Source of the DNA: an alpha proteobacterium AAP38
Lineage (GTDB): Bacteria; Pseudomonadota; Alphaproteobacteria; Azospirillales; Azospirillaceae
Length of the DNA stretch: 64,000 bases
Assembly (NCBI GenBank): GCA_001296005.1
Contig: LJHR01000025.1
Location: forward strand, 1 to 64,000
Direction: 5' to 3'
The stretch's first letter is position 1; every line of letters begins with the position of its first letter. The notes beneath the pieces are model-generated. The model searched no databases. It had not been told where the DNA came from and saw only the letters and a list, made by a program, of their open reading frames with translations. This document shows positions 9,004-34,276 of this stretch, piece by piece. The translations under genes and the position numbers were made by a program.

Positions 9004-9168
9004 ACGTCCTCTGAGAATAAACGCGCTGCGAATTCTGCCGGGTTCTAACACGGAACGAAGCCGCAGTACGATGCGAGATGCTGAGGAAGGGGGCAAGGGG
9101 ACTAGAGCTCAGTTCTTGCCACTGCACAATTCCGATCCGTCAATGCATGCCCCCGCCAACGTAGGGGG

Positions 9169-9373: not shown

Positions 9374-9595
9374 TCACCTGTCCCCCAGGTCCATCCCGTT
9401 GTCCCGTGCTATCCGTTCCATGCTCCGCTGGTAGAGCAGCCAGCCGCCCACCACACCGCCAATCCCTGCCGGGAACAACACCGACCCCATCCAGAAAGCC
9501 GATACGGCCAAGCATACCGCCCCCACAACCCACGCCGCGATAGCGGCAATGAACATCAAGGTCGCGGCCGTCGATATGTGGGGAGGGCCCCTCAC
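9374..9595 (-). CDS. Small two-helix membrane protein
   Basis: The 73-residue product has two hydrophobic helices, LMFIAAIAAWVVGAVCLAVS (about 13-32) and a second through FPAGIGGVVGGWLLY, then a charged tail ending GMDLGDR. It starts with a GTG that overlaps the stop of the upstream endonuclease-fold gene (GTGA at 9592-9595), so it is translationally coupled. It may anchor or protect against the exported partner, but no family is recognised. Confidence 0.6.
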   Translation of the reverse strand: MRGPPHISTAATLMFIAAIAAWVVGAVCLAVSAFWMGSVLFPAGIGGVVGGWLLYQRSMERIARDNGMDLGDR

Positions 9596-10928: not shown

Positions 10929-13886
10929 TCAGCGCTCGAGCCTCACGCGCAAACGTCGTGCACGCTCCTTAAATGCTGCTTCCCCGCCTTCCAGGATATC
11001 GCAGACCTGCCGGCGCATTTCTGCCTCTTCCAAGCCGCCAGAAACGTAGCTTATCGGCGGTAGCTGCCCGTGACTGTGGGTTCCGGCAGTCGCAACGATG
11101 ATCTGGTCTGCGTCGGTGTTTATGACCAGGTTGGCGTTGTGGGTCACCATGATCACCTGGCGCTTGGCCTTGGCGGCGATGAAAAGGCTGACCAGCTCGT
11201 CAAAGATCGACTTCGGGTCAAGGTTCTCTTCTGGTTGATCGATGATAAGCGGTCGATGGTCACTTTCGTCGAGCGCAAGGTATAGCAGCAGTAAAACAAT
11301 GCCGCGCGTGCCTGGAGACAGCTTGGTTATGTCCGTACCTTCATAGTTTATGCTGTATTCAATCTGGACGTGCTCTGTACTGAAAAGCCATTTGGCGAAT
11401 CTCATTAGCCAGTTTCTGTAAGCCTGCGCATCGTTGGCAGGCACGTTCGCTACCGCGGTCAACTCTTCCTGCCAGGCTTCGGTGAACAGCTTCAACGCTT
11501 CGCCGATCGCCGCAACATCGCCCGTCTCCCAGGCTTCTCGCATGTGGCGGTTGGCCCATTGCGCAATAGACCCCTTGCCCTTGAAATCGCCAACCCGCCG
11601 GAGGTCAAACAGCTTCTCACCCAGAGACGCCCATTGCCCGACATCGGCGTGGCGGGTCGCAGAGAAGGACAACTTGCGCAAAGTGCCCTCCGCAGCTTGC
11701 AGCCGATCCACCAGGGGCTTGTATAAGTCGCGCAGCACATGCTCCTTTGCCAGGATCGCCTCAAACACCCGCAAGTAGGTGGTCTGGCGCTCGTCGCTGA
11801 GCTTACGCATGCGATCGGCCGCACCTTCGCAATCTGCGAGAGAAGCTCGAAGTGCTTCGATCTGGGTGTTCTCTTCTGCGATACGCCGCACCAGAGCCGT
11901 GAATTTCTTGGCAGTCTCATTGTCGATGTTGATGAGCCCCTGGAGGCGGCTGACTTCAGCCTCTAGCGTCGCCAGAGCCATGTTCTCCGGCTCATGCCCT
12001 GAAACGATAAATGACACAGTGGGATCCTGAGGCGGCGTTGGCGGAACGCCGCGCCATGAGGCAGCGCTTTTGCTGGCCTTGTCGAGCTTCGCACGCAACG
12101 CCTCGTCAACGTCGCCATGGTACTCGAGGAGAAAGGCCTCCCAGTCACTGTCTTCAAGTCGGGCTGACACGTAGTTTGCTTTAATCTGACGCAACGCCTC
12201 AGGAGCTTTGTTCTGCCGGAAGGCCTTGACCTCGTCTTGTAACGCCAAGACCGAAGTCTCCTGGGTCACAAACCACCGAACATTGGACCGCACCTTCTCC
12301 ATGGCGTTGACGATGACGGTTAGCCGCTCTGCGCGCTCCTCGCTCCCTTTAACGATTAGTTTGTCGCGGTCAGCCTGCAAGGCTTTTACCGTCTGCTCCT
12401 TTTGAATAAGCTGCTGTTTGAGGCCGACAATACGAAGCTTCTTCTCGCGCTCGGCCCCTATCCCGTCGGAAAGCCTCTCAATCGCTTCCTCCTCCCGCTC
12501 ACGCGCGAGATCAAAGCGTGCGGCGCGCAAGCTGAGCAGTTCGTCGAAGTTAAAAGTCCCGTCCTTGTCTGGGTGAGCTTCGAAGATCACCCGCTCGATC
12601 TCGTCCATCAGCGCGTCCGTCACGCCGTCGGCGGAGCAAAGCTCCTCCACGAATTTCTGCGAAAGGTAGCGGGCTCGTGGAAACCGGCCATCGAGTTCGG
12701 AATCATATTCGTAGTCGAGCAACATCCGGCGTGTTGGGTCACCTGTCCCCCAGGCAAGCTCGACGCTGGCGTCCCGGAGCAGGTCCCCGGCCCGTATGAG
12801 GAAGGAGGCAGCGCTAAGGTGTTCCGATGCGGCATCGCACCCCGCCGCGATGGCGTCGGCAAGCGCCGTCTTTCCCGAACCGCGCGCGCCGATGATGGCG
12901 ACCAACCCTGGATTCAGCGTCAACGTCGGGGTCGCGGCCCAGGTCGCGTCCTTAATCTCGACGCGCGAGATGACATGTGACGGGATTGCCCGCATGGGTG
13001 GGATGATACCTACGAAAGCGCGACCCTCAGGATCGATCACAGCTTGGCGCAGCGTATCGAACTGGGCCGCACCCTTGACCCAGGAATAGCGATTTCCATC
13101 CGGAGTCCCCACCTTATCCGTTGCGTGCGCGTCGCTCCCGTGCAAGCAAGGCTTTAAGGCACCATAGCGCGAGCGTATCTCCGCTGGGGACAGCGCCCTA
13201 CGGCCCAGCCAGAAATCGCGTTGGCTGGCACTGCTCGCAAAAATGACATGGGCGAACTTCTCGACTTCGGCCCGCAACACGCCTTCCGACTCCCCGCGCA
13301 TCCCGCCGGTACCGTCATGCTCGCTTCCTGCAACGGCTATGAGGATGTTCTTGCGTGCCCAAGCCACGGCTCGGTAAACCTCGACCAACTGTTCGAAGCT
13401 TACCTTGAACTGCGTCGCACCACGCACGAGTGCCGCCCGACCGCTTAGGTTGGGATCAACCTTGCTACCGAGGCGGGCGAGGTCGCCCGGCGTGCATGTA
13501 TAACGATCTTCATCTGCATCGAACGTCAGTTGCTGCAAAAATCGCCGTGCTGCGCCGACATGATCAGGATCTTCGGGGCTGACCAGAAGATGACAGTTAA
13601 CCCAATTCCCCTTTATCGTTCCGAATCCGAGACGAAGCTCAACGTTAGGAAAGATCAAATCTACATTGGCAAGGCGTCCGTCGTCGATCTTTGCGCTTCT
13701 GACCCGTTCATAGGTGTCTAAAAGGTAGTAATCGGTGACGCCAAGTGCCCGAATAGCCGGCGTAGCTTCCTCGATTTTTGTGAGATACTCTTCCCACGAA
13801 TCCGTGCCCTTGAACTGGTCGTTGAGAACCGTACCAGGTGCATGAACATGCGGCTCCCAGCGAAGCCAACGTGACCCAGAATTCAC
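10929..13886 (-). CDS. TrlF-like PHP-domain SMC-type ATPase
   Basis: The 985-residue product begins with a PHP phosphoesterase-like domain: WEPHVHAPGT gives the H-x-H pair, GVTDYYL follows, and GSDAHATD appears near residue 250. An ABC/SMC-type ATPase split by a long coiled coil follows: Walker A GARGSGKTA at about 330, the coiled coil at about 430-700, signature LSPGTRGIVLLLL, Walker B LIIDQPEENLDP near 880, and the H-loop VIMVTHNANL. This architecture is that of TrlF-family AAA-like ATPases, associated with phage-defence loci. The GTG start at 13886 is preceded by AAGGGGGGAAGC. The PHP acids look intact, so nucleolytic activity controlled by ATP is plausible. Confidence 0.85.
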   Translation of the reverse strand: MNSGSRWLRWEPHVHAPGTVLNDQFKGTDSWEEYLTKIEEATPAIRALGVTDYYLLDTYERVRSAKIDDGRLANVDLIFPNVELRLGFGTIKGNWVNCHLLVSPEDPDHVGAARRFLQQLTFDADEDRYTCTPGDLARLGSKVDPNLSGRAALVRGATQFKVSFEQLVEVYRAVAWARKNILIAVAGSEHDGTGGMRGESEGVLRAEVEKFAHVIFASSASQRDFWLGRRALSPAEIRSRYGALKPCLHGSDAHATDKVGTPDGNRYSWVKGAAQFDTLRQAVIDPEGRAFVGIIPPMRAIPSHVISRVEIKDATWAATPTLTLNPGLVAIIGARGSGKTALADAIAAGCDAASEHLSAASFLIRAGDLLRDASVELAWGTGDPTRRMLLDYEYDSELDGRFPRARYLSQKFVEELCSADGVTDALMDEIERVIFEAHPDKDGTFNFDELLSLRAARFDLAREREEEAIERLSDGIGAEREKKLRIVGLKQQLIQKEQTVKALQADRDKLIVKGSEERAERLTVIVNAMEKVRSNVRWFVTQETSVLALQDEVKAFRQNKAPEALRQIKANYVSARLEDSDWEAFLLEYHGDVDEALRAKLDKASKSAASWRGVPPTPPQDPTVSFIVSGHEPENMALATLEAEVSRLQGLINIDNETAKKFTALVRRIAEENTQIEALRASLADCEGAADRMRKLSDERQTTYLRVFEAILAKEHVLRDLYKPLVDRLQAAEGTLRKLSFSATRHADVGQWASLGEKLFDLRRVGDFKGKGSIAQWANRHMREAWETGDVAAIGEALKLFTEAWQEELTAVANVPANDAQAYRNWLMRFAKWLFSTEHVQIEYSINYEGTDITKLSPGTRGIVLLLLYLALDESDHRPLIIDQPEENLDPKSIFDELVSLFIAAKAKRQVIMVTHNANLVINTDADQIIVATAGTHSHGQLPPISYVSGGLEEAEMRRQVCDILEGGEAAFKERARRLRVRLER

Positions 13887-14395: not shown

Positions 14396-17300
14396 ATGAA
14401 AATCCCTAGTTGGTTGTGTTTTGAAATCAACATGCTTGAGTTGAGCAACCTAATGGAACGAGAACGTCGAAAACAACGCCTAATCGAGCTAGAGGGGATT
14501 TTTCACGCAGCCAGGACTGGACCCGGCTCATCACCGTTCCTGCCCGAAATCCCGCTGAGTACGTCGTTTCTCGAAGAAGCTTGCGATCTCGTGCAGCGGT
14601 TTCCCCTTAATCTGTTGTTCAACCAGACCCCGACAATCGCAGTCTGGTCAATCCTATACCCCTTGTCCGTCAACTATGGGGGAGCCTCAAAGGAGGTTTA
14701 CGCCCACATCGGCTCTTTCCTGGAACAGTCCTTCGATGACGAGGCGACCAGGGACGATTTGAAACAGCATTTCCGCAGAACGGCGCGATCCTTGGGACTA
14801 CCGGTCTCTGGAAACCAGCCAACCGAGCTCTTCTTCGCGCCGCTCGGGCCGGCCCGACAGCAAATGGCGGACCTCGCAGACGCGTTTGTTTACGCGACGA
14901 TCCGGTTTGGTCCGCCGGCGATTGAGGACACTACGGCGGCTCGTCAGTGGCAGCGCCGAGCACTGCTCGAACGGTGCCCCGCTCATACCCGGCTTCGGGC
15001 GACTATCGCCTTTGACACCTCCGCATGGTGCTCGCGTAGATTTGAGGCATGGCGCAAGGGTCGTGACCCGATAACGGAGAACGAACGTCACCTTTTTGAC
15101 GCTTACACGGCAGCGGCAGGGGTTTATGGCCGGGGACGGATCGACCTCGTTGGCCCGCCACAGCTGTGTTGGTCTGTCGATCGGCTAACCCTGGAGGCGG
15201 AACCCTCGCCCTCGCCGCAAAGGCTGAAGCTCGGCGCTTTCCCAACTTCCATCAAAGGAGGTTGCCGGATTACCGTCCCCCACCCCTGGCCCCGCGAGGT
15301 TGAGTGGGGATACGGCAAGACGTCGCAGCCGGTGCGGATCGCTCCGAACTGGGGCGAGGCGCTCCTGTTTGATGCAGATACGGGCCGGCTCCTTACCCGA
15401 ATCTGTGCAGACCAGCGCGAGATTGAGGTCTCCGCAGCACATCTAGTCATTCTAACGCCTGACGAGTTTGAGAGCCCGTCCTTCGGGCCCGCAATCCCGG
15501 CCAGGGATCCCGCATTCAAGGTCGCTTGGGTGGACGCGGGCGAAACGCTTCGGTTCGAAGATGGCCGGGACCTTCGGTTCGCCGCCCCCCGGGAGGAGGC
15601 AATCTGGATCGACGGGACCGTAATCGGACGCGACGGAAGCAGGGCGCTCTACAGCTGCGACGGGGCTTTGAGCCTGAAGATTGATCCAGAGATCGGCGGC
15701 AGCGCCCGGATCATCCGGATGCGGATGGGGTGCCTCACCCGTTTCGTGTCGATCGAGGCGGGCGTGGATAGAATGGTATGTGTTCCATTCGTAGATTTCG
15801 GCCTTTCAACGCTGTCTACGCCAGGAGAGGCAGTATTTGAAGTCCTCGCGCCTGGCGCCATCCGGGATGGGGGGGCTCGCCCGACCCTGACCACCCGGTG
15901 CTGGATCTGGCCGGGGCTGAGGACTCCTCAGGGGGACCTGAGCGGTGTAACTCTTCCGAGCAATCTCGTTAAGGCACACTGTGCCGGGTTGCGGGTGGTT
16001 GACGGGATTGTCAGCGTCGATCCGGAGGCAGATGAAGAGACACCGATCCTCGGTCTTTCCGAGCGCGATCGCGTCCATGAGTTCCACTTAAGCGCCCGCA
16101 GCGAGAAACTATGGCATAACCGTATCGAGCGGGGGGACCGAGTATTCGTGCCTCGCGGTGGTCTCATCATCATGGGCCATGAAAATCGCCACGATACCCT
16201 CACGCTCCGCTCGCCGGACCGAACTGCCGCGCTTCTCGTCCTCGGTCGCGAAACTCGACGCCCATTTCATCTGAGGCAGACCCTTGAGATCGGTGCGGGC
16301 CAGCTGCGGAGCCCGATCGACGGAGATGATCGGATCGCCCTTATTCGGGGAACAGGACGCGTGGAGGTCTTGGCGCGGCTTCGACGGCGGACCGACCCTA
16401 CCCAGCTTCTCCTGACGGAGGGCCTGGATCAAATCTGTCTCTCGATGGCCCTTTCAGCCCCTTATGATGCGATCAGAATCCTGATTGAGGAGCCCTCCGG
16501 GCCGGGGTGTGTCGGAGAGACCGCGTTCGGACGCGAACCCGTCAGCGTTCCGGCCCTGCCCGGCACCCAAGTGGGATATGATCCAGACACGCGTCAGCTC
16601 TCCATCACTTTTGTCAGGTCAGACCTGCCAACGCCCGCACGTGCCACCTTCCAGCTTCGACGAGAGCGGGAGGATTTTAAGGATGTGCGTGACGCTCGCG
16701 GGGCTCTGATCGCGATCGGTCTGTCAGGTCTGCCGCAACGGGCGGATACGCGTCAGCTTATCGAGGTCGCGCGCCTCCTGTCAGAACCCGAGCCGGACGA
16801 CCTCTCGGGAAAGCTTAGAGCGTCCCTCACGCCGGCTTACCGGGAAGCGATCCGGACGGTCAGTGGGACATCACCGTTTTTGGGGCGCGTGCGTGGGCTC
16901 CTCTCTGTTGCCAGGTCGAACGGCGCGCCGCCACGCCATGATTTGGTCGCAGCAGTGCCTTGGCTCTTTGAGGCCGGGCTGCACGCATTCACTGGAATCT
17001 CGGTCGAGAAAGGGCTCGCACCCCTCCAAACTATGGCGGAACGTCCGGCCCCCAACCCGGCCCCAAGCCTTAAAGGGGATGCTCCCCTTGAGGTTTGGCT
17101 GAGCCGTGTCTCGTCTGGGGATCAGGTCCCGCGTGCGTTTCTCGCAGACGAGCTTCAGCGCGGATTTCGCGTACTCCGTTGGCGGCTCAAGGAGACGGAC
17201 CTACATGACTTGGTACGAGAAGGGCCGATCGGGACAAATGTTCGGCTCGTGTCCTCTGCACATATTGCGGAACTGGAACAGATCCGCTCATTCGACGTCG

Positions 17301-17527
17301 GGGGTGGAGGGGATCCGCTTCCTGCCAGGATAGCGGTCCAGATTGAACGGTTTGCGCGCGCCTGCGCACAGAGACGGGCTCAAACCTTTATTGATCACAC
17401 CGCCTTCCGGACCGGGCTCTCGGTTGATGAGATCGGTTTTATTCTGACCCTGATGATCCGGGCAGGAATAGAGATCTTCGCCTATTTTCGCGCCCTCTGG
17501 GCGCATGCTGAGAAGGATGGTGATTAG
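14396..17527 (+). CDS. Large unknown protein, first gene of a helicase operon
   Basis: The product is about 1043 residues if it starts at the ATG at 14396; GTG codons at 14381 and 14393 are in frame, and AAGGTG at 14378-14383 is the only ribosome-site candidate. I recognise no domain. The first 230 residues are helical with a Trp/Arg-rich stretch (CSRRFEAWRKGRDP). Residues 250-800 look beta-rich, with repeated short strands and many Gly-Asp turns. The last 230 residues are helical again. No signal peptide, membrane segment or P-loop is visible. Three bases separate its stop from the helicase start, so the products are made together. Its place beside a DUF1998 helicase recalls accessory proteins such as DruH, but I see no motif that proves homology. 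Confidence 0.75.
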   Translation: MKIPSWLCFEINMLELSNLMERERRKQRLIELEGIFHAARTGPGSSPFLPEIPLSTSFLEEACDLVQRFPLNLLFNQTPTIAVWSILYPLSVNYGGASKEVYAHIGSFLEQSFDDEATRDDLKQHFRRTARSLGLPVSGNQPTELFFAPLGPARQQMADLADAFVYATIRFGPPAIEDTTAARQWQRRALLERCPAHTRLRATIAFDTSAWCSRRFEAWRKGRDPITENERHLFDAYTAAAGVYGRGRIDLVGPPQLCWSVDRLTLEAEPSPSPQRLKLGAFPTSIKGGCRITVPHPWPREVEWGYGKTSQPVRIAPNWGEALLFDADTGRLLTRICADQREIEVSAAHLVILTPDEFESPSFGPAIPARDPAFKVAWVDAGETLRFEDGRDLRFAAPREEAIWIDGTVIGRDGSRALYSCDGALSLKIDPEIGGSARIIRMRMGCLTRFVSIEAGVDRMVCVPFVDFGLSTLSTPGEAVFEVLAPGAIRDGGARPTLTTRCWIWPGLRTPQGDLSGVTLPSNLVKAHCAGLRVVDGIVSVDPEADEETPILGLSERDRVHEFHLSARSEKLWHNRIERGDRVFVPRGGLIIMGHENRHDTLTLRSPDRTAALLVLGRETRRPFHLRQTLEIGAGQLRSPIDGDDRIALIRGTGRVEVLARLRRRTDPTQLLLTEGLDQICLSMALSAPYDAIRILIEEPSGPGCVGETAFGREPVSVPALPGTQVGYDPDTRQLSITFVRSDLPTPARATFQLRREREDFKDVRDARGALIAIGLSGLPQRADTRQLIEVARLLSEPEPDDLSGKLRASLTPAYREAIRTVSGTSPFLGRVRGLLSVARSNGAPPRHDLVAAVPWLFEAGLHAFTGISVEKGLAPLQTMAERPAPNPAPSLKGDAPLEVWLSRVSSGDQVPRAFLADELQRGFRVLRWRLKETDLHDLVREGPIGTNVRLVSSAHIAELEQIRSFDVGGGGDPLPARIAVQIERFARACAQRRAQTFIDHTAFRTGLSVDEIGFILTLMIRAGIEIFAYFRALWAHAEKDGD

Positions 17528-17530
17528 GCC

Positions 17531-20500
17531 ATGAGCACATTGAACCCAAACACCTTCCGCGATCAGCTGAACATGGTCCTTGGCCGATATATCGCTACGT
17601 CCTCCCCTCTCAACGAGGTCCGTTCCCCCCATCTCGCAGCGGCGGTTCGGGATAAGATCGAGGGGCTTAACTTCGTCAAGGGGCCTTTTGTCGAGACTCT
17701 TCCGGATTTCGAGAAAGGGACTTCGCTTGAGGGGCTCCATGCAGAGGGGGTTCTGGCACCCGCTTGGTCCGCCTTCGCTGAGAACGCGCCCTTCGTCTGG
17801 CGCCGGTCGTTACACGCCCACCAGGAAACTGCGGTCAGACGAGCCGAGAATTATCTTGTCGCCACTGGGACAGGCTCGGGGAAGACGGAGAGCTTCCTCT
17901 ACCCACTCATCAACGATATCCTCACACGGGGCAATCTCCATCGGCCCGGCGTCCGCGCGATCCTGGTCTACCCTCTGAACGCGCTGGCAAATGATCAACT
18001 GAACCGAATAGCTCGGCTCCTCTTTCGTGATCTGGGGGATCCGGGGATAACGCTCGGTCGATACACCGGCCAAGTGAAGGCGAGAGCGACGCGGGAGGAG
18101 GAGATCTCTCGCTTGCGGTCAAGCCCGAGCTTTATCGACTCCTTTGGGGACGACGCAGACGTGCCGGACAACTGGCTCCTGTCCCGGTCAGAGATGCGGG
18201 CGCGTCCTCCGCATATCCTGCTCACAAACTACGCGATGCTGGAGCACATTCTGCTCCTCCCGACCAATCGTCCGCTGCTCGCTGGCGCAGACCTGAGGTG
18301 GATCGTACTTGACGAAATTCACACCTATGCGGGTGCTCAGGCGATTGAGGTCTCCTTCCTGCTGCGCCGGCTAAAGGCACATCTAGGGATCCCGGACAGT
18401 CAGGTTCGATGTGTCGGAACCTCTGCCTCCCTGGACCCAGGGCGCAAGGCGGAGCTTTCCGACTTCGCGTCTCGTCTGTTTGGGGAACCATTCGCGGGGG
18501 CCAGTTCCGTTATCACATCAGCCCGAAAAGCCCACCCGTCGCTCCAGAGGGAGGCGAACCCCAGTGGGCTCGGCCCGGACCTCTGGGCGAAGGCTCGAAA
18601 CCTTGCGGAACTGTCGCGAGATGCAGCGCATAATCAAACCCCATTGACGATCGAGGATTGGAATGCGGAGGCGACTCTGGCCGGTCTGCAGGCGCTCTGC
18701 CTTGAGGATGCACCATCGATCGGGGACGCGCTGATCTCCCGGCTTTCCGCGTTTACGGAGGTCCATCGGCTCGCGCACCGGCTTGAAGGGGGGGCGGTCC
18801 CGTTGGAGGTGCTGGCCGAGGAAACGTTCCCGGACGCGGGCGAGAAGGCCGTTCTGGCGTTGATCGGGCTCATCTCCATCGGGGTGCTCGCGGTGAGTGA
18901 GGACAACGCCGTGTTTCCGCTCCTCCCGGCGCGTTACCACCTGATCTCCCGCGCGCCGGACCGGACCGCGATCACCTTTGACGCGAACGCCCCGGAGAAT
19001 ATCGGGGAGGTCGTGATCGGTGCGGACCGCGGGGCGGATGAACGTCCCGCGTACGAGCTTTATGTGTGCCGCAACTGCGGTGAAGCGTATGTCGAGGCTT
19101 GGGATGACGGGGTACGGCTCACCCAGACCCCTGGAGGGATCCGCCATCTGTTACGCCTCAGGCCAGGCGGTCACACTCTTGAAGAGGAGGATGAAGAGGA
19201 CGGGGTGCAGGACGCCACGCATATCCTGCATATCGACCCGCTGTCAGGGGAGCCAATGCCCGAAGCGGACGCTCGGGCCGTTGCGGTGGAGGACGTCCCC
19301 CTTGAGGAGGACCCGGACGACGGAAAACGGTACCTGAAGCGTTGCGCCGCCTGCAATCACCGGTCTGCCCGCCATAGCGAACCGGTCACTACCGTCCGCC
19401 CCGGTGATGAGGCGATCGCCGCCGTTGCAGCCCAGACCTTGCTGGAGGCGATGCCGGAACGGGCGATGGGGCAATCCCCACCAATGGGGGGGCGTAATCT
19501 GCTCACCTTTTCCGACAATCGACAGGACGCCGCCTTCTTCGCCCCCTTCTTTGAGCGTACCTCGCGCGAACAGGCGATTCGTGGCGCGATACTGCGGTCG
19601 GTTGAAACGGGCGGACGGACGGATATCGACAATCTTGTCGGAGCCGTCGTGCGGGAGCTGCGCTCAGACGGGCTGCGCTTGTATCGCCCGGGGGTGCTCC
19701 CGGAGCTGGAGACCGGTCTTAATGAGCAGGCGCGTCTGAAAGCGCTCATCGCCGCGGAGCTTACGGTCTTCGGCCGCGGTCGTCTCAGCCTTGAGGGATT
19801 CGGGCTTATCCGGGTCGACTATGCGGCCCTTCAGCGGCCCGTTGAGCAGGTTAGGCGGGTGATGCCGGATGCGATGAGGCCCTACGCGGAACCGTTCGTA
19901 CGTTATCTCCTGAAGGCCATCCGCGAGCACCGAGCGATCTCAGACAAGCAGTCCGGGATGATTGACTTGACCGATGAGTCTATCTGGACCCGGATCGCGT
20001 CACAGAGCGCCCGTTGTGTCACCTTGGAGCGGAACCCGCATACGACGCTACCGCTGAGTCTGATCCCGTCCGCAGGGCACCAGAACCGGTTCACGGATTT
20101 GCTCTGCCGGATGGCGCGGGCCTGCGGCGTTGATCTAGGAGATAATCAAATTCGGGACATCATTACCCAGTTCTGGAAGGGGATTGAGCACCCAAAAGCA
20201 ATGACGGCTCCACATGGGGTGGGACGAGGCCTTAAGCTCGACCGGGATCTTCTTATCGTCGCGGGTCGTGACCTGCCTCTGTTCCAATGCACCTCCTGCG
20301 GTGCCCGGACTCAATTCGACACAGCGGGCGTCTGTCAGTCCATGCGGTGCGACGGAGCCCTTCAGGAGATCCCGCCAACCAAACGCGAACGGATGAATGC
20401 CACGAACCATTATGTGGCCCGGTACCGCGAACACCCTCAGATGGGGATTGCTCGGGAGCACACGGCCGCGATCACGGCGGAGGTCCGGTTAAACATTGAG

Positions 20501-22471
20501 GACGGGTTCAAGTCTGGTGAGATCAACCTTCTTTCCTGCACGACAACGATGGAGATGGGAGTCGACCTGGGCGATCTTGAGGCGGTACTATGCAAGAACG
20601 TCCCTCCATCGATCGCAAATTATCAGCAGCGCGCCGGTCGGGCTGGGCGACGGGCCCAGGTTGCCCCGATCGTGCTTACGACGGCCCGATCCGGAAGGTT
20701 TGACAGGGCCGTCTTTGAGGGGTTCTCAGAGTATCTCCATACCCAACCCATTATTCCGTACCTCAGCCTCGATAACGCCGGCTTTTTCCAGCGTCACCAG
20801 ATCTCGATGGTGTTGTCCGGATTTCTGGAGCGCCGCCTTTCCGAGTATACGCGTCCTGGGTCCCCCCGGCTCCGAGACGTGTTCGCGGAGGCATTGACGA
20901 AAGAGGCCCGAGAGAGGTGGAATCAGAGCTTAGAGAGTTGGTTAAGCGATGCTAAAGCAGATATTACCGCCGCAGCGGAGCTCGCGAACCGTTTACCTCC
21001 CGCGCTCTCAGGGATCGGTCTGGACGTTAGTCGGCTTCAGGAGGTGTTCAGATCACGCCTGACGCATTTTGCGGACATGGCATGGGGCCGTTTCGGTCTC
21101 ATTCAGGAGGCCATTGATGAGCTTGAGGATCAGCGTAAACAGCTCGCGTCCACGGAGGCGGACAAGCTGATCCGGGTCGACCGGGCGCTGACCGCGCTCC
21201 GAACGCAACAACGCCTCTATATGAACCAGTTCCTGATCGACCAGCTGTCCAGGCGGGCGATCATCCCGACCTACTCGTTCCCGGTCCATTCGGTCTCCCT
21301 TGAGGTGTTGAACACGGTCGGCCAGACCTCTGACACGGCCGTGCTTGAGCTGGATCGGGACGGGTCGATCGGAATCGCCGAATATGCCCCAGGGGCCGAA
21401 ATCGTCGCCGGCGGGCGGGTCTGGACCAGCGCGGGGATCTCCAAGCGATCAAGATTTACCGGGGACGACACCTATATCGACCGCGCTAGATATAGGGTCT
21501 GTGGGACGTGCCGGTCCCCACAAATCACCCCTCAAGGGGCGGAGCCGGAGCCGAATTGTCCGCAATGCGGCGATCCGTTCCAGAGGGTTCAGCGGCTTCG
21601 GAACTTTGTCCGTCCACACGGGTTCATTACCTCAGTGACTGACGGTCAGGGGCGGGACCCTGGGGCGAGCCGGATCAAGCCAACCGTGTCAGATGAGGCG
21701 CTTCTTCTCACGGAGGCGCCCCGTTCGAAATACCTCCCCACGGATCTCCCCGGCGTCCTCACCTTCCATGCTCCCGGGTCAAACCGGCCGGACAGGGAGT
21801 TGGGTCGGATCCTCACCGTCAATCGCGGCCGTCACCGCGGTGGTTTTGCGTGGTGTTCCTGCTGTGAACACGCCATCCCCGTCTTCGGGGCGGGACCTGA
21901 AGCGGCTTGGCAACAGACGACACTCCTCCCGGCTCACCTCAATCCGAGAAGCGGACAGCCGTGCCGTCATGACCCGCGCAATCAGGTCTGGCCGATTGAT
22001 CTCGCCCACGTCTTTGAGACAGATGTCCGGGGGCTCCTCTTTGAAGGGGCCCCAAGAGATCCGTCCGGTACGATGATTCAGTCGGCGCCCTCGCTTGACC
22101 GTACCCTCCAGGAAGCGCTGCGGCTCGGCGCCGCGGAGCTCCTAGAGACAGACCCGCGGGACCTTCGCGCCATCACTCAGCGCCTGAACGGCTGTCTCGT
22201 CGTGGTGCTCTATGATTCCGTCTCTGGCGGCGCCGGGTATGCGACCCGGCTCACTAACGAACCGGGATATCTCGCCCGCGACCTCTTCCTGGCCGCCCGA
22301 AACGTCCTCAATTGTCCGAATCCGGATTGTAAGACGAGTTGCACCCGGTGCCTGAACGACTATTCCAACCAACGATACTGGCCTGATTTTGAGCGACGCC
22401 CTGCACAGGCCTGGATAGAGACAATCCTGCTGGAATCGGGCGAGAAGATTGAACCGGAGTGGAGCAAATGA
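17531..22471 (+). CDS. DEAD/DEAH-box helicase with DUF1998-type C-terminus
   Basis: The 1646-residue product has an N-terminal superfamily 2 helicase core: Walker A GTGSGKTE at 113-120, DEIH box LDEIHTYAG near 261, motif III VGTSASL. The second RecA lobe has TTTMEMGVDLGDL and QRAGRAGRR near 1032. Several Cys pairs suggest zinc ribbons (CRNCGEAY; CAACNH; CTSCG with a later CDGAL; CGTC with CPQCGD; CSCC). The C-terminus has YDSVSGGAGYATRL and the Cys4 set CPNPDCKTSCTRCL, as in DUF1998/MrfA-like helicases. Helicases of this class are cores of Druantia (DruE) and DISARM. The 250-residue insertion between lobes, with acidic EEEDEEDG, is unusual. It translocates on or remodels nucleic acid with ATP; the target is unknown. 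Confidence 0.9.
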   Translation: MSTLNPNTFRDQLNMVLGRYIATSSPLNEVRSPHLAAAVRDKIEGLNFVKGPFVETLPDFEKGTSLEGLHAEGVLAPAWSAFAENAPFVWRRSLHAHQETAVRRAENYLVATGTGSGKTESFLYPLINDILTRGNLHRPGVRAILVYPLNALANDQLNRIARLLFRDLGDPGITLGRYTGQVKARATREEEISRLRSSPSFIDSFGDDADVPDNWLLSRSEMRARPPHILLTNYAMLEHILLLPTNRPLLAGADLRWIVLDEIHTYAGAQAIEVSFLLRRLKAHLGIPDSQVRCVGTSASLDPGRKAELSDFASRLFGEPFAGASSVITSARKAHPSLQREANPSGLGPDLWAKARNLAELSRDAAHNQTPLTIEDWNAEATLAGLQALCLEDAPSIGDALISRLSAFTEVHRLAHRLEGGAVPLEVLAEETFPDAGEKAVLALIGLISIGVLAVSEDNAVFPLLPARYHLISRAPDRTAITFDANAPENIGEVVIGADRGADERPAYELYVCRNCGEAYVEAWDDGVRLTQTPGGIRHLLRLRPGGHTLEEEDEEDGVQDATHILHIDPLSGEPMPEADARAVAVEDVPLEEDPDDGKRYLKRCAACNHRSARHSEPVTTVRPGDEAIAAVAAQTLLEAMPERAMGQSPPMGGRNLLTFSDNRQDAAFFAPFFERTSREQAIRGAILRSVETGGRTDIDNLVGAVVRELRSDGLRLYRPGVLPELETGLNEQARLKALIAAELTVFGRGRLSLEGFGLIRVDYAALQRPVEQVRRVMPDAMRPYAEPFVRYLLKAIREHRAISDKQSGMIDLTDESIWTRIASQSARCVTLERNPHTTLPLSLIPSAGHQNRFTDLLCRMARACGVDLGDNQIRDIITQFWKGIEHPKAMTAPHGVGRGLKLDRDLLIVAGRDLPLFQCTSCGARTQFDTAGVCQSMRCDGALQEIPPTKRERMNATNHYVARYREHPQMGIAREHTAAITAEVRLNIEDGFKSGEINLLSCTTTMEMGVDLGDLEAVLCKNVPPSIANYQQRAGRAGRRAQVAPIVLTTARSGRFDRAVFEGFSEYLHTQPIIPYLSLDNAGFFQRHQISMVLSGFLERRLSEYTRPGSPRLRDVFAEALTKEARERWNQSLESWLSDAKADITAAAELANRLPPALSGIGLDVSRLQEVFRSRLTHFADMAWGRFGLIQEAIDELEDQRKQLASTEADKLIRVDRALTALRTQQRLYMNQFLIDQLSRRAIIPTYSFPVHSVSLEVLNTVGQTSDTAVLELDRDGSIGIAEYAPGAEIVAGGRVWTSAGISKRSRFTGDDTYIDRARYRVCGTCRSPQITPQGAEPEPNCPQCGDPFQRVQRLRNFVRPHGFITSVTDGQGRDPGASRIKPTVSDEALLLTEAPRSKYLPTDLPGVLTFHAPGSNRPDRELGRILTVNRGRHRGGFAWCSCCEHAIPVFGAGPEAAWQQTTLLPAHLNPRSGQPCRHDPRNQVWPIDLAHVFETDVRGLLFEGAPRDPSGTMIQSAPSLDRTLQEALRLGAAELLETDPRDLRAITQRLNGCLVVVLYDSVSGGAGYATRLTNEPGYLARDLFLAARNVLNCPNPDCKTSCTRCLNDYSNQRYWPDFERRPAQAWIETILLESGEKIEPEWSK

Positions 22472-25400
22472 ACGATAGCAGGCCCATTGGCGATCTGCAG
22501 TCCCGATCTTCGACTGCTTCCGGGTCTCAAACGCCCCCCGCACCGGTAATCATGGCCAACTGGTCTCCGCAGAACTGGGAGGTGCCTACCAGCTTTACGA
22601 ATTTCCCGATCCTGGAGCTGTGCCCCGCCGCACCGAAACTCCTCGCTGAGGCCGGTTATCTCTCACTACGGGACCTTAAGGCGATCATCGCAAGGTTCGA
22701 GCTGGATCTGGACGTTCGGGATCAGATCGGCGTCTATCGTCACCTGCTGGAGTTAGCTCAGTCCGCTCCGTGGGTGTTCCCGGTCGTGGAAACGGTGGCC
22801 GCTGAGAACCGTGGTCGACAGAGCGGCCAGAAGTCACGAAAGAAGTCGGTCCCGGACCATGTCCTTTTGAAAATGCCGCTCTCGAAGTTTCGCTTGAAGT
22901 CCCGTCCGGAATTGCATGGGCGTCTCAGCGAGCTGTTGGCCCGACCTGTCGGTTCGGATTTGAGCTTGGCTGCCTTCTTCGAGTACGCGATCATCTCGTT
23001 CGAGGTGATGAGCAAGGTGCAAAGCCTTAGATCCTTGACGGATGAAGCAATACGCCTCTTCCGGGTGAGAGCACCAGGGGATGAGCTCCGCGATCTGCTC
23101 GGAAGCCTAGATCAGGTGACTGACTGGGCGACGCATGCGGACCGGATCATTGCCTATGTAGAGCAGAATCCGGAAAAGGTGACCGCTCTGCTTCATGATC
23201 ACGCGCTCCGGACCGCCCGCGCACTCGCATCGATAGCGTCTACGCTGACGGATCCAGTGGACCTGCTCAGGGTCGGCAAAATATTCGGCGTGGCCGGGCG
23301 TTTAGCCAGTGTTCTGAATACACCGAGAGGGGAGGATGTGCTCACCCGAATTCTGGGGCTCGGCCTTGAGTGTGATCCTGATAAGGTTGGGGATGAAATG
23401 CTCTCCTTCCTGTCCTCTGCTCTGAATTCCGGGCTCGAATCCAGTGTTCGGCGCCTCGAACACAAAATCTCGGAGCTAGAGGAGGAAGTGGCGGAACTGA
23501 AGAAGTCGATCGCAACCGCTGTTTCAGGAGAGAACTATAAGCAGGCAGGCGAACTGAGCGCCCGCGCTGCGACGGAAAAGGAGACGTTGGTCGCCCTTGT
23601 CCAAACAAAAGAGAATATTTTCACCCTCGTCGCAGAGGTTCTTGCGGGAGCCATAAATGACCACCAAGCTGTTTTGTTGGAGCTTCAAATCCTGCTGTCC
23701 GAAACGGATGAGGTCTTGAACACAGCCGTCACCGGCTGTAAGCGGAACGAGCCTACTGACGATAAAGGCCCCGACGACACGATTGAGGATCAGGCATACG
23801 ATCACCAGCCCTCCGCTGAGCCTCGGGGTCCGGAGTTTCACCCTGATGCCCTCGAGGTGAGCGCGGATGATGGATCGTCACCCGATCCCATTGAGCACGG
23901 TGAGGAAAGTAAAGAAGAAGAACGGGAAGAGGATAACGCGGGAAAAGGGGTGCCGGACCGAGAGATAGATTCTCAGGTAACCGACATCTATAACTCGGAG
24001 CACCGCCTCAAGGCCGCCCCCGTTCCGGTTCCAGCCTTGGCTAGCCTGATCGATCGGGGTTTCCTCGCCATCGCCTTTGACGCAGCATCTACACTCGAGG
24101 CGAACGGATATTTCTGGCCGATCCAAGCGGCGGTCCTAAAGGTCGCCGCTGCAAGCCGGGCACCGCTAAGAGGTTATGGAGAGGAGAAACACCGTTTCCT
24201 CGAGATCACCACCACGGCCAGATCAGCAATTGACTCGGAACTGAACTCAACAGTGTTGTTGGCGGCACTGTTGCGGCCGGCCCTCATGGACCCCTCCTTA
24301 GGGTTAAGAAGCGGCCTGACCGCCCTTTGCTGGGGAAGCACCGGAACGCATCTTCGGCAAATCGCGGAAGCGATCGCTGATTTGGATTACGAATTTCCGC
24401 CAGACCCTGATGAACTCGCTCGCCTCTCCGGCATCCAGTCCGTGCCGCAGAAGCAGCGGATCGCTGGGAAGCTCCTGAAGTGGCGGGAAGCGGCTTCGAC
24501 GCGCACCTCAAGATGGCCATTCGCCACCAGTTTCATGCATCACGTCGTTTCTGACGTGGGGTTGATCGGCACCGCTGTAGCCGCCATAGCATCCGATCGA
24601 CCGGATGCTATGGAGCGGGCGCGTCACGCGATTGACAGGTTATCCTCCCCAGCCGAGATCGACGCCGCTGCTGAGGAATTCGGGTCGCGAACCGGGCGAG
24701 GTTCATCGCAACTTTATGAGAGAGGGAGGGAGTACCTGGAGCGGCAGTTCGACGAAGCGCTCGGCCTGCTTCACGGCTGGATCCGTGCCTCCACACGAGA
24801 GGGGGGGGATCGGCAGAGGTCTGAAGCCCGTCATCGCACAATGATCAGCAACTTGGACTCCCGCCTCGAAAAAGCATCTGAGGGCCTCGCGCATGATCTA
24901 ATGAGGTACGAGGGGACGATTGAGGGGGCCGTGATTGGCTGGGTCCGGCGTCAGATTGACGAGATGAGCTGTCTTCTTCGTGGAGAGCACACCCCGACCT
25001 ACCCGACCCTGGACGAGGCCCTGAAAGCGGAACGCGATCTCCTTCCCGCTGCGATAAGGTCTACCCTCGACGCGTCTGAAAACGCCTTTGAGCAGTTCTC
25101 GGAGGTCCTGCGTACCGACAGCGTACCAGACCCTGAGGAGGCCTATCGTCGCGCCCGAGTGGAGGGTGCATTCGAGACGGCGTTGCGGCTCATTGACCGC
25201 TTCGGCTTGGACTGCCGCGATGATCTGTACAAGGGTAAGGCAAGTTTCTCAGACCTATGGATCCAACGTATTGAGCGTTGTGAACAGAGCCTTAAGACGC
25301 TGGCCAAGATCGACTATAAGCATCAGAGAGAGATCACGCAGCATCTTAGCTGGTGTGAGATCATGCGGTCCCGGCTTGAGGCGCTCCGGACCGGGTCTGA

Positions 25401-28400
25401 TATCCGCGATTTGGCCGAGATCCCGTCTGGGCTCGAAGATCTTGACAATGTGGTCCGCCAGATTGAGGTCAATATCCGACAGGATCAGATGGCCCGGATC
25501 GAACAATATCGGACGGATCAGAATACCGATGAGGCGGATGCACTGAAGGAGAGCCTCCAGACGCTTGCGGCCGGGGCGATTGAAGACCGGATCGCGCAGC
25601 TTCGCGACGGTCGTTCCGCCGCAGTGTTTGAAACGGATCTGGCCGGTCTCGTCCGTGAATTCAACGAAAAATTCCTTAACCTAGCCTCAAGTGACGTTTG
25701 GCCTGTGACAGAGGAGGTCTGGGCGTCTGCCGTTTCCGCAGTGGGACCTCTGCATATCGACGAGGGCCGGCGGACGGCCGGGCTTGAACTGGTGGGACTG
25801 TATCGGGACATCGCGAAATCGATCACGTCCCGAGCCCCTAATAGGACGAAGCTGCAGCGCCTCTTTGAGGAGATCGGATATGAGGAGGTGAAGATTCACA
25901 TCCTTAGTCCCGTCGGTCGCTCCGCCTGGAGCGTAGACCTGTCAGGCACGATTCGGGCCGGTGCAACGGAGGAATGGTTCCTCCCCCCAATGTTCGGGTC
26001 CCGCGCGGTCGGAGGGATCAGACTTCTTCTGATCGGCCCGGACACTCTCCCAGAGATGATCATAAAGCAGCTGTCTCCGGATATCGGGGCGATCCTGCTC
26101 TTTGCCGGGGTAATTGACCGGGCGAAGCGGCATGAGCTCGCACAGGGGCTCCGCGCGGGGGCGATCCCCGCACTCCTTATCGATGAGGCACTCATCGCGT
26201 TTGCGGCCACGAGACGCGAGGCCAGAGCCCGTACGATTTTTGAGTGCGGCCTCCCTTATGGTCGGGTCGAGCCCTATACGACTGATGCGGGCCGTCTCCC
26301 CCCGGAGATGTTCTTCGGGCGCGGTGAAGAGATCCGACTCATTATGTCAAAGACGGCAAGCGGCTGTCTCGTGTATGGGGGGCGCCAACTGGGCAAGTCC
26401 GCCCTTTTGGGCCATATCGCCCGGACACAACACGCCCCGGAAGACGATCGGATCGTCGTCAGCCGTGAGGTTCGGTCTCTAGGTAACTCAGAGGAGACTT
26501 CCGAGATCTGGGCCCATCTCGCCTTGATGCTCTCTCCGGATGTGGTGAGGCCGGCGAGCAGGACCGCTGGGGAGGTTGAAAGGGACATTACCGAATGGAC
26601 GATCCTGAAGCCGCGTGGGCGCATCGTCGCTATGTTTGACGAGGCAGACCGGTTCATGGATGCGGACACAAAGGATGACTATCCGGAGCTCGCGCGGCTG
26701 AAGAAGCTCATGGAGGACACCAACCGGGCGTTCAAGGTCGTGTTCGCAGGCCTTCATAATGTCCAGAGAATGTACCGTCAGCCGAATTCCCCGCTGGCCC
26801 ATCTTGGGGAGCCGATCTGTATAGGCCCCCTGAACCGGACCGCGGCGGACAAACGGGCCGCGTATGACCTAGTTGTAAAACCGATGCGAGCCGCCGGTTT
26901 TTGTTTTGAGAGCCACGAAGCGGTTGAGCAGATCCTCTCTTGGGCGAACTATTATCCATCCCTCGTACAAGAGTACATGAAAGGGCTGCTTGCGACCTTG
27001 CATGGGACTGGGAGCGGAAAAGCCTACAGGCTGACCGACAACGGTCCGCTGTGGCCGGTCGAGACGGCGATGCTCTTCTCTCATCGGACCTTCGGGCAAA
27101 TCGAAGGCCGGATCCGCGACAAATTCCACCTCACCCTGAACCTCGACCCCCGTTACGCGCTCGTCGCCTACACGCTCGGGCGGCTTATCGTTGAGGGGAA
27201 GGAGTATGAGGCTCGGGTAAACGGGCTTGAACCGGCCGAGCTTCTGGATGAGGCGAGACCGTTCTGGCCGAAAGCCTCCGAAATACCCTCAGTTGCCGCG
27301 TTCGAGGCTCTTCTTGAGGAGCTTTTCGATCTGGGCATCCTTGGGCGTGTGCCTGTGCCTGAAACGAAGCGGTACCGATATCTGCTCGGGACCCGACAGG
27401 TCCTGACGATGCTCGGCTCCGAGACAGATATTTATCACGCGCTTCAGGCTATCGAGGAGAAGGATCCCGCCGTGACCTACGACCGAGCCCTTCATCGGCG
27501 ACGTTTCAGGCTCAGGAACGGCGCGGGGCCTGATGACTGGGGGTACGCCCCACTCACGGACCTCCAGATTGAGCGGTTCTTTCACCAAGACGCACTCCCC
27601 GTGCAGATCGTCTGCGGGCTTGAGATGCTCGGCCTCAGCAAGGTCGGGGTTTCTCTTAAACGGATTGTAGAGAGCGGTCGTCTCCCCGGTGGACCCGAGA
27701 AAGGGATGTTGGTCGAAATCGCGAAGAATTCGAAAGAGCTACGGGTTCTAGTTGATCATAAGTCTACTGCGGGTCAGCTTCGATCAGTGGTGCTCTTCGT
27801 GCCTGACACCGCTGATCAGGCGGATCAGGTGACCAGATGGCTTGAGCGTCAACCGGCCGTTATTGACCGGAGCGTCTTGCCGATCCTGATACTTGATGCT
27901 GCGGATAAGGAGATGCGGAATTTCGCAATAGCGCGGTCCGGAGAGACTCAGTTTCTGAAGCCCTGGGGGGCCGAGATGGTTCGGATGCATCTCCATCAGA
28001 ACGAGCAGATGGAGCTGGACACCAAACCGATCCGGGACACAATTATGGCCGCCACGGGCGGAGTGCCGGTCGAGGTAACAAAGCTTATCCGGGAACTCCG
28101 AACGCAGAGCGACCCGATCTCGTTCCTTACAGCATGGCACCCCGACATCGGGGTGCCCGACCGCCTCTTTGATGCTGCGGAGGGAAAGGCCCTAAAACTG
28201 TTGGACCTCTATGACGGGAAGGACTTCGACTTCATAAATGAACTTGTTCGAGAAGAGACCGGTGAGGATATCGTGTCCGTCGGCCCCGACCTGCTCGCGA
28301 TGGGATTGCTCTCAGATTGGAGGCCGCGAGAAAGGCGCATCCGACGCTCTGCCTTGGGTGATCTGATCTCACGTATGATGCAACGAGAACATAATCCTCC

Positions 28401-28416
28401 GATCAACCGGGTATGA
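22468..28416 (+). CDS. Giant coiled-coil P-loop ATPase, third gene of the helicase operon
   Basis: The ATG at 22468 overlaps the helicase stop (ATGA), with GGAG just upstream; the product is 1982 residues. A helix-hairpin-like segment (LAEAGYLSLRDLKAII) lies near residue 60. A coiled coil follows at about 325-400 (RLEHKISELEEEVAELKKSI), then an acidic linker (ESKEEEREEDNAG), long helical repeats, and a P-loop module: Walker A GGRQLGKSALL near 1303 and Walker B VAMFDEADRFMD near 1389, with VVFAGLHNVQRMY as sensor region. This resembles the ORC/Cdc6-STAND group of ATPases. The C-terminal 400 residues contain a winged-helix-like end. I infer a sensor or loader working with the helicase; no nuclease motif is visible. 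Confidence 0.8.
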   Translation: MNDSRPIGDLQSRSSTASGSQTPPAPVIMANWSPQNWEVPTSFTNFPILELCPAAPKLLAEAGYLSLRDLKAIIARFELDLDVRDQIGVYRHLLELAQSAPWVFPVVETVAAENRGRQSGQKSRKKSVPDHVLLKMPLSKFRLKSRPELHGRLSELLARPVGSDLSLAAFFEYAIISFEVMSKVQSLRSLTDEAIRLFRVRAPGDELRDLLGSLDQVTDWATHADRIIAYVEQNPEKVTALLHDHALRTARALASIASTLTDPVDLLRVGKIFGVAGRLASVLNTPRGEDVLTRILGLGLECDPDKVGDEMLSFLSSALNSGLESSVRRLEHKISELEEEVAELKKSIATAVSGENYKQAGELSARAATEKETLVALVQTKENIFTLVAEVLAGAINDHQAVLLELQILLSETDEVLNTAVTGCKRNEPTDDKGPDDTIEDQAYDHQPSAEPRGPEFHPDALEVSADDGSSPDPIEHGEESKEEEREEDNAGKGVPDREIDSQVTDIYNSEHRLKAAPVPVPALASLIDRGFLAIAFDAASTLEANGYFWPIQAAVLKVAAASRAPLRGYGEEKHRFLEITTTARSAIDSELNSTVLLAALLRPALMDPSLGLRSGLTALCWGSTGTHLRQIAEAIADLDYEFPPDPDELARLSGIQSVPQKQRIAGKLLKWREAASTRTSRWPFATSFMHHVVSDVGLIGTAVAAIASDRPDAMERARHAIDRLSSPAEIDAAAEEFGSRTGRGSSQLYERGREYLERQFDEALGLLHGWIRASTREGGDRQRSEARHRTMISNLDSRLEKASEGLAHDLMRYEGTIEGAVIGWVRRQIDEMSCLLRGEHTPTYPTLDEALKAERDLLPAAIRSTLDASENAFEQFSEVLRTDSVPDPEEAYRRARVEGAFETALRLIDRFGLDCRDDLYKGKASFSDLWIQRIERCEQSLKTLAKIDYKHQREITQHLSWCEIMRSRLEALRTGSDIRDLAEIPSGLEDLDNVVRQIEVNIRQDQMARIEQYRTDQNTDEADALKESLQTLAAGAIEDRIAQLRDGRSAAVFETDLAGLVREFNEKFLNLASSDVWPVTEEVWASAVSAVGPLHIDEGRRTAGLELVGLYRDIAKSITSRAPNRTKLQRLFEEIGYEEVKIHILSPVGRSAWSVDLSGTIRAGATEEWFLPPMFGSRAVGGIRLLLIGPDTLPEMIIKQLSPDIGAILLFAGVIDRAKRHELAQGLRAGAIPALLIDEALIAFAATRREARARTIFECGLPYGRVEPYTTDAGRLPPEMFFGRGEEIRLIMSKTASGCLVYGGRQLGKSALLGHIARTQHAPEDDRIVVSREVRSLGNSEETSEIWAHLALMLSPDVVRPASRTAGEVERDITEWTILKPRGRIVAMFDEADRFMDADTKDDYPELARLKKLMEDTNRAFKVVFAGLHNVQRMYRQPNSPLAHLGEPICIGPLNRTAADKRAAYDLVVKPMRAAGFCFESHEAVEQILSWANYYPSLVQEYMKGLLATLHGTGSGKAYRLTDNGPLWPVETAMLFSHRTFGQIEGRIRDKFHLTLNLDPRYALVAYTLGRLIVEGKEYEARVNGLEPAELLDEARPFWPKASEIPSVAAFEALLEELFDLGILGRVPVPETKRYRYLLGTRQVLTMLGSETDIYHALQAIEEKDPAVTYDRALHRRRFRLRNGAGPDDWGYAPLTDLQIERFFHQDALPVQIVCGLEMLGLSKVGVSLKRIVESGRLPGGPEKGMLVEIAKNSKELRVLVDHKSTAGQLRSVVLFVPDTADQADQVTRWLERQPAVIDRSVLPILILDAADKEMRNFAIARSGETQFLKPWGAEMVRMHLHQNEQMELDTKPIRDTIMAATGGVPVEVTKLIRELRTQSDPISFLTAWHPDIGVPDRLFDAAEGKALKLLDLYDGKDFDFINELVREETGEDIVSVGPDLLAMGLLSDWRPRERRIRRSALGDLISRMMQREHNPPINRV

Positions 28417-34268: not shown

Positions 34269-34276
34269 TGGATGCC

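What the first reader, a model, noticed from the sequence alone, without database searches (positions are those of the whole stretch)
14396..28416. Three-gene, 14-kb operon around a DUF1998 helicase: candidate new defence system
Seen: three same-strand genes with a 3-bp gap and an ATGA overlap; the middle one carries DEAD/DEAH helicase motifs plus a C-terminal Cys4 DUF1998-like end, the third a coiled coil and a Walker A/B pair near 1303/1389, and the first has no recognised domain. Known: DUF1998 helicases are cores of Druantia (DruE), DISARM (split as DrmA and DrmB) and MrfAB. Inference: neither partner shows the methyltransferase, nuclease or Dru-type signatures I would expect, so this may be a distinct Druantia-like type in which a giant P-loop protein replaces the known accessories.
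Basis: partly seen in the sequence, partly recalled or inferred. Interest (0 to 1): 0.85.

Follow-up and report, generated by a model that had tools for sequence, protein, structure and literature searches.

The report
STAND-switch, DruE-like helicase three-gene system
Three neighbouring bacterial genes, inherited together in many relatives, look like an undescribed anti-virus system that joins a Druantia-like DNA helicase pair to a giant immune-switch ATPase, each part without the nuclease-like piece that its relatives carry.

Summary
The operon is real: P1 (14396-17527, 1043 aa), P2 (17531-22471, 1646 aa, DruE-clade DUF1998 helicase), P3 (22468-28416, 1982 aa). The trio recurs, same order and strand, in 22 of 80 genome loci fetched through P2; protein distances correlate at r 0.976-0.981.

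P1 is a new family in DruH's position (helical / Ig-like / helical model, pLDDT 90.5) but matches no DruH profile. P3 is a STAND-type ATPase.

Two results were unexpected. (1) Most related P1-P2 pairs without P3 carry about 360 extra residues on P2, a PLD-fold (MIT_C-like) tail: 23 of 25 tail-less P2 have P3, 0 of 27 tailed ones do. On the tree this is essentially one event. (2) Outside the trio, P3 relatives sit beside a homologous partner in 9 of 11 loci, with a HEPN-like R-x4-H end in 7; 21 trios and the window lack it downstream.

So the trio looks like a merger of a Druantia-like pair and a STAND module, each without its usual nuclease-like part. Defence function rests on family and neighbourhood; the mechanism is inferred. 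It fails at least one defining feature of Druantia I-IV, DISARM and ARMADA. It may overlap the 'Druantia III-B' helicase branch (Bell et al. 2025), whose sequences were out of reach.

The parts
14396..17527 (+). P1, 1043 aa: new family in the position of DruH; predicted helical (1-243), tandem Ig-like beta domains (256-776), helical (785-1041)
   Evidence: no family match above cutoff; AF2 pLDDT 90.5; best structure matches are mostly Ig/FN3-type proteins, low TM; homologues upstream of P2
17531..22471 (+). P2, 1646 aa: DruE-clade (YprA/MrfA family) SF2 helicase with MZB/DUF1998 Zn domain, ending 35 aa after the Cys4 motif, without the C-terminal PLD-like tail of most pair-type relatives
   Evidence: sequence; PADLOC DruE3 544 bits, DruE1 544; relatives
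22468..28416 (+). P3, 1982 aa: STAND-type P-loop ATPase (core about 1160-1660) with a long N-terminal half of unknown fold and an alpha/beta C-terminal part
   Evidence: (top match 2qen, P. abyssi PABY2304, TM 0.63 on the target)
26377..26400 (+). Walker A of P3 (GGRQLGKS, residues 1304-1311)
   Evidence: invariant in 22 of 22 sequences
26638..26643 (+). Walker B acidic pair of P3 (D1391 E1392)
   Evidence: invariant in 22 of 22 sequences

Best explanation
A three-gene defence system of the DruE/YprA helicase family. Shown: P1-P2-P3 are inherited as a unit; P2 is a DruE-clade helicase without the PLD-like tail; P3 is a STAND-type ATPase with intact Walker motifs; most P3 relatives examined go with an HEPN-like protein that is missing here. 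Inferred: P1, built like DruH with Ig-like domains, recognises an infection cue (a phage structural protein or a DNA-bound complex). P2 loads on phage DNA with exposed single strands and translocates. P3 is the ATP-driven switch that, once triggered, oligomerises and drives or licenses P2 in place of the tail. Phage DNA would then be blocked by unwinding or translocation and destroyed by host nucleases, or by a cryptic activity in P3's unmodelled N-terminal half. The confidence is for 'defence system in which P3 stands in for the lost tail'; the step-by-step mechanism is nearer 0.3.
For: Trio in 22 of 80 genome loci plus the window, 19 at under 90% P2 identity (window included); distance correlations 0.976-0.981 over 22 trios. 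A Sinorhizobium plasmid remnant keeps P1 pieces and the P3 C-terminus in the same order. Tail only 27, P3 only 23, neither 2, both 0; the tail is PLD-fold (MIT_C at E<=1 in 13 of 33, best 7e-5; PDB 2ymb E 1.6e-5). The P3 core resembles STAND/AAA and NLR ATPases. P3 relatives have the HEPN-like partner in 9 of 11 loci, two of these also fused to pPIWI_RE parts, which fits an ATPase with exchangeable partners; none downstream of 21 trios and the window. Defence neighbours: TrlF and Schlafen-like genes in the window; CBASS-, AbiJ- and WYL-type genes near other trio-clade loci (no control set). Druantia III and ARMADA are proven defence systems (PMC13192584, PMC12458937, read in part).
Against: Tail loss and P3 gain coincide only once on the tree: of two independent pairs that differ in the tail, one shows the exchange and the other no change in P3, too few for a test. 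L124 lost the tail without P3; L083 has neither. No effector activity is visible in P3; Pfam, PADLOC and PDB sequence searches give nothing convincing in its N-terminal half (best ABC_tran_CTD at E 0.015, below cutoff). No experiment exists.
Confidence: 0.55

Rival explanations
1. P1-P2 is the complete Druantia-like restriction unit, and P3 is a separate guard: an NLR-like STAND protein that watches P1-P2 or a phage anti-Druantia factor and triggers growth arrest when they are disabled.
For: STAND/NLR resemblance of the core; in Methylocystis (L016) a P3-partner pair lies beside DruH-DruE, and in G053 (L055) beside a DruE-type gene, without being merged with them.
Against: Trio P3 lacks the HEPN-like partner that would be the obvious killer; trio P2 lacks the tail that most other P1-P2 pairs keep, so P1-P2 here may not be complete alone.
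Confidence: 0.2
2. It is a lineage of 'Druantia Type III-B', the DruE branch of Bell et al. 2025 that mostly lacks a nuclease, and so largely known.
For: That paper says helicases of its separate 'Druantia Type III-like' branch most often have no nuclease domain and occasionally PLD domains; that this branch is the 'III-B' of its Figure 3 legend is my reading. P2 scores best with DruE3.
Against: P1 fails the DruH models; the P2 clade is apart from the 3 DruE3 rows used, though with long branches; in the paper's main text 'ATPase' occurs once and 'third gene' never.
Confidence: 0.2
3. It is a DNA repair or element-maintenance module (MrfAB-like), not a defence system.
For: MrfA shares the family and works in repair (PMC12458937, introduction); a T4CP gene and a relaxase-like ORF nearby suggest a mobile element.
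Against: Patchy distribution (P1 in 2 of 385 class genomes, window's included), defence-type neighbours, best match to DruE models.
Confidence: 0.05

Closest known systems
Druantia type III (DruH-DruE)
   Same: Large accessory gene followed by a DUF1998 helicase, near-overlapping; P1 has the same overall plan (helical, Ig-like, C-terminal domain) as described for DruH in PMC13192584
   Different: No sequence match between P1 and DruH; P2 lacks the C-terminal nuclease part; a third giant STAND ATPase is added; P2 forms a separate clade
Druantia 'Type III-B' helicase branch (PMC12458937)
   Same: DruE-like helicase, usually without nuclease domain
   Different: Could not be compared directly; no ATPase partner in the parts of the paper read
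ARMADA I/II
   Same: DruE-like helicase core
   Different: [quoted passage not shown] neither is among the three genes or the 10 other window ORFs scanned
P3 + HEPN-like pairs and the P3-pPIWI_RE fusions (one paper search, listing only)
   Same: P3-type ATPase, over most of its length in 7 of 11 relatives
   Different: HEPN-like partner, or pPIWI_RE, instead of P1-P2
STAND ATPases (archaeal PABY2304/SSO1545; NLR-type)
   Same: P-loop ATPase fold, Walker A/B
   Different: P3 is far larger; its sensor and effector parts are unidentified

Membership tests
Druantia type III | DruE-family helicase with DUF1998/MZB | tested here: met
   PADLOC DruE3 544 bits, DruE1 544; Pfam MZB 41 bits
Druantia type III | DruH (YjiT family) partner | tested here: not met
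   P1: 0 PADLOC and 0 NCBIfam hits at E<=1; hhalign of 3, 53, 20 and 73 P1-type sequences against 7 DruH: none. Positive control L016 DruH hits 9 DruH3 models and NF038336 at 574 bits. Structural homology: not decided
Druantia type III | C-terminal nuclease part on DruE | tested here: not met
   P2 ends 35 aa after the Cys4 motif (sequence; relatives)
Druantia types I, II, IV | DruA-D, or DruM/F/G, or DruF+DruL partners | tested here: not met
   P1 0 PADLOC hits, P3 only JetC3 at E 0.26. Type IV and part of type II composition from PMC8565338, the rest recalled; I did not list which Dru models PADLOC holds
Druantia Type III-B branch | helicase groups with GIH50614.1 | not testable with these tools
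   sequence not held
DISARM | split DrmA/DrmB, methylase, PLD nuclease | tested here: not met
   helicase and DUF1998 in one ORF; no methylase or PLD match in the three genes
[quoted passage not shown]
   P1 and P3 match neither; the two ArmC rows fall apart from P2
STAND/AAA P-loop ATPase (P3) | Walker A, Walker B and STAND-type fold | tested here: met
   Pfam scores mostly weak
P3 + HEPN-like pair | HEPN-like partner next to P3 | tested here: not met
   none in 385-1271 bp after P3 in 21 trios (L078 has only 31 bp) nor in 6 kb after P3 in the window, with 5 of 5 controls found from 400 bp; none in the window's genome; present in 9 of 11 non-trio loci
Anti-phage defence system | protection against phage | not testable with these tools
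   needs plating

The most novel reading that the evidence does not exclude
Two defence systems, a DruE-like helicase pair and a STAND + HEPN-like pair, merged into one after each lost its own nuclease-like part. The result stops phage with no dedicated nuclease: a STAND switch controls a DNA translocase.
Probability: 0.3. Interest if true: 0.85.

Novelty: new variant of a known kind. Interest (0 to 1): 0.72.

Why it matters
It would be the first DruE-family system tied to a STAND (NLR-like) ATPase that I know of, and a case in which likely intermediate arrangements still exist: P1-P2 with tail, P3 with HEPN-like partner, both kinds of module side by side (L016, L055), and the merged trio. It makes testable whether a defence helicase can act without a nuclease, and whether STAND ATPases are exchangeable switches for different effectors. 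It also brings a P1 family of 72 homologues; the members put to the PADLOC, NCBIfam and Pfam libraries gave no match above cutoff.

Tried and rejected
P1 = DruH by sequence: rejected. P1 = DruH by structure: inconclusive. P3 as chance neighbour: rejected. A repeated trade of tail for P3: cannot be tested; the tail changes 4 times and P3 twice, and of two independent pairs one shows the exchange and one does not. P1 alone in genome contigs and viral contigs gave nothing; a P2 region between the helicase motifs worked. A HEPN-like R..H pattern in the window's own proteins: none in P3, one match each in P1 and P2, not checked further.
Full report
OBSERVATION. The three ORFs stand as described, with a 3-bp gap and an ATGA overlap. 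P2 carries DEAD, Helicase_C and MZB domains; P1 matches nothing above cutoff; P3 shows AAA_22/AAA_16 below cutoff. PADLOC scores P2 best with DruE3 (544 bits) and DruE1 (544), finds nothing for P1 at E<=1, and gives only a JetC3 match at E 0.26 for P3.

RELATIVES. P1 is rare: only the window's own genome among 145 relatives, and 2 of 385 genomes of the class, window included. Single-protein scans with P1 found nothing. A scan with a region of P2 shared with two relatives (A5) found 208 relatives in genome contigs, of which the best 80 were kept, and 2 viral contigs. By phmmer, 22 of the 80 hold P1-P2-P3 in this order on one strand (P3 cut by the contig end in L078). One is a Chloroflexi-labelled MAG (L076), whose P2 is nearly identical to that of Salipiger, so transfer or mis-binning is possible. 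With the window, 19 trios differ by more than 10% in P2. With a P1 profile, 42 of the 82 loci (viral contig L149 included) hold a P1-P2 pair without P3; L083, a trio-clade member without P3, is counted there. The other 18 have a broken, cut or missing P2 or P1 and were not classed. Some pair loci end too soon for P3 to be seen; these were left out of the counts below.

ONE UNIT. Over 22 trios (window included, full-length P3 only) pairwise distances correlate at r = 0.980 (P1/P2), 0.976 (P2/P3) and 0.981 (P1/P3); 0 of 999 permutations reached these. Spacing is tight: P1/P2 overlap by 4 bp in 15 of 22 fetched trios, and P2/P3 distances run from -160 to 72 bp, counted from the longest possible starts. 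A Sinorhizobium medicae plasmid keeps a broken P1 (44-49% identity), then an IS21, then the C-terminal quarter of P3 (49%), in the same order; no P2 was found in the 34 kb read.

THE MISSING TAIL. Most complete pair-type P2 proteins run about 1970 aa and carry about 360 residues after the Cys4 motif (L102 and L124 do not); trio P2 proteins end 29-42 residues after it. Among 52 rows with both traits known: tail without P3 27, P3 without tail 23, neither 2 (L083, L124), both 0. L102 and L121, with short or cut tails, could not be scored for P3. The tail has the signature DPY...FHDR...GID, matches MIT_C (phospholipase D-like) at E<=1 in 13 of 33 members, best 7e-5, and MITD1 in the PDB at E 1.6e-5. 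Whether it is catalytic is not known. On the P2 tree the 24 trio-clade rows form one group inside tail-bearing relatives. On a tree without tail columns the least number of changes is 4 for the tail and 2 for P3; of two independent pairs differing in the tail one shows the exchange and one does not. The association is therefore one ancient event, kept afterwards, not a repeated trade. Long branches make the place of the outside rows unsure.

P1. The model (63 sequences, pLDDT 90.5, pTM 0.73) is helical at 1-243, beta-rich at 256-776 and helical at 785-1041. The best PDB matches are Ig-domain proteins and the viral ones include Ig/FN3-type phage proteins, all with low TM over the whole model. 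DruH is described as having a helical N-terminal region, three Ig-like domains at 257-748 and a C-terminal domain (PMC13192584, passages), so the plan is alike; but no profile comparison links them, while a true DruH passes the same PADLOC and NCBIfam libraries easily. In L135 a P1-type protein has two copies of the DruH N-terminal region in front of it (48 and 62 bits), a further hint of shared function. I hold P1 to be the functional counterpart of DruH, not a proven homologue.

P3. The C-terminal half (1060-1982; pLDDT 80.1, pTM 0.55) is best matched by the archaeal STAND-type ATPase 2qen (TM 0.63 on the target), with ORC/Cdc6 proteins, 2fna (0.60), NRC2 and CED-4 further down. Walker A and B are invariant in 22 of 22. 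Pfam sees AAA_16 in 21, ATPase_2 in 20 and AAA_22 in 13 of 22 members at E<=1. Nothing convincing identifies the N-terminal half. In 7 of 11 non-trio relatives the match to the trio profile begins at position 257-429, so roughly the first 300 residues look particular to the trio.

P3 ELSEWHERE. In 11 distinct non-trio P3 loci examined, 9 have a homologous partner gene just downstream (L013, L014, L015 = L057, L016, L053, L054, L055, L056, L058), not L017 and not L059, whose contig ends about 0.4 kb later. Four of these nine built the profile. Seven of the nine show R-x4-H near the C-terminus (RNxxAH in six, RHKLAH in L056); in L015 and L058 my pattern found it only elsewhere. Five aligned partners share an invariant RNxxAHxxP end, and Pfam hints at HEPN families in three, below cutoff. 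This supports, and does not prove, a HEPN RNase. The partner profile finds nothing among the called ORFs of L069-L150, nothing in the 385-1271 bp after P3 in 21 trios or the 6 kb after P3 in the window, with 5 of 5 controls (one of them outside the profile) found from 400 bp, and nothing in the window's own genome. In a 385-genome sample of the class, P3 at E<=1e-15 was found in the window's genome and in G115 only, and the partner in G115 only, 0.8 kb from its P3 match; a looser search found P3 in 10 of 145 relatives. Two of the nine P3 relatives are fused to pPIWI_RE domains (X, MID and RNaseH in L058, part of RNaseH in L015). In L016 the order is P3 relative, partner, DruH, DruE; in L055 it is P3 relative, partner, then a convergent DruE-type gene. 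Such neighbourhoods show how the trio could have arisen.

MECHANISM. Shown: unit inheritance, helicase family, STAND-type fold, absence of the tail and of the HEPN-like partner. From the literature: DruE engages DNA intermediates with single-stranded parts and DruH is the likely sensor (PMC13192584, abstract beginning and passages). Inferred: P1 senses, P3 switches, P2 acts on DNA. What destroys the phage genome is open: host nucleases after unwinding, a hidden activity in P3's N-terminal half, or none.

CONTEXT. Upstream and divergent lies a TrlF-family ATPase (NF045780, 660 bits), then an Exo_endo_phos gene and a Schlafen-AlbA/HATPase gene; downstream are a relaxase-like ORF (my reading of the sequence) and a T4CP. 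Among 66 neighbour proteins of trio-clade loci, 32 PADLOC families match at 1e-8 or better, CBASS-type SAVED-HNH, E1-E2 and JAB among the 25 shown, each in one protein; Pfam finds AbiJ, Abi_C, integrases and transposases. No control set was scanned, so this is not a test of enrichment.

NOVELTY. Searches of the paper library showed no listing whose title or abstract beginning describes a DUF1998 helicase with a STAND ATPase; only 15 of 32, 15 of 22 and 12 of 91 papers were listed, most subscription papers are not held, and supplements were out of reach. The nearest work is Bell et al. 2025 (PMC12458937), whose III-B branch may include P2. Hence new variant of a known kind.

Noticed in passing
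L013:12549-19468, L014:10404-17677, L054:3723-10429, L055:7316-13718, L053:744-5053: Two-gene modules: P3-type STAND ATPase plus a ~375-aa partner with a HEPN-like RNxxAH end; possible undescribed defence pair.
   Followed up: partly
L058:7428-17195 (-): A 3256-aa protein joining pPIWI_RE domains (X, MID, RNaseH) to a P3-type STAND ATPase.
   Followed up: partly
L135:3827-8446: P1-type protein with two copies of the DruH N-terminal region fused in front.
   Followed up: partly
L016:5112-25364: UvrD helicase, P3 relative, HEPN-like partner, DruH and DruE side by side on a Methylocystis plasmid.
   Followed up: partly
window 10929-13886 (-): TrlF-family AAA-like ATPase divergent from the operon (NF045780, 660 bits), itself a likely defence gene.
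   Followed up: no
window 7519-9096 (-), 9592-10458 (-): Schlafen AlbA_2 / HATPase_c_4 protein and an Exo_endo_phos protein beside it.
   Followed up: no
window 29253-36256 (-): 1671-aa relaxase-like ORF (by reading) followed by a TrwB/TraD-type coupling protein: the operon lies in or near a conjugative element.
   Followed up: no
L012:5587-9185: SIR2-family gene among three TIR-domain genes near the trio remnant on the Sinorhizobium plasmid.
   Followed up: no
L060:5296-11686: Short DruE-like helicase (1406 aa) preceded by a 725-aa gene not identified here; perhaps another DruE-type system.
   Followed up: no
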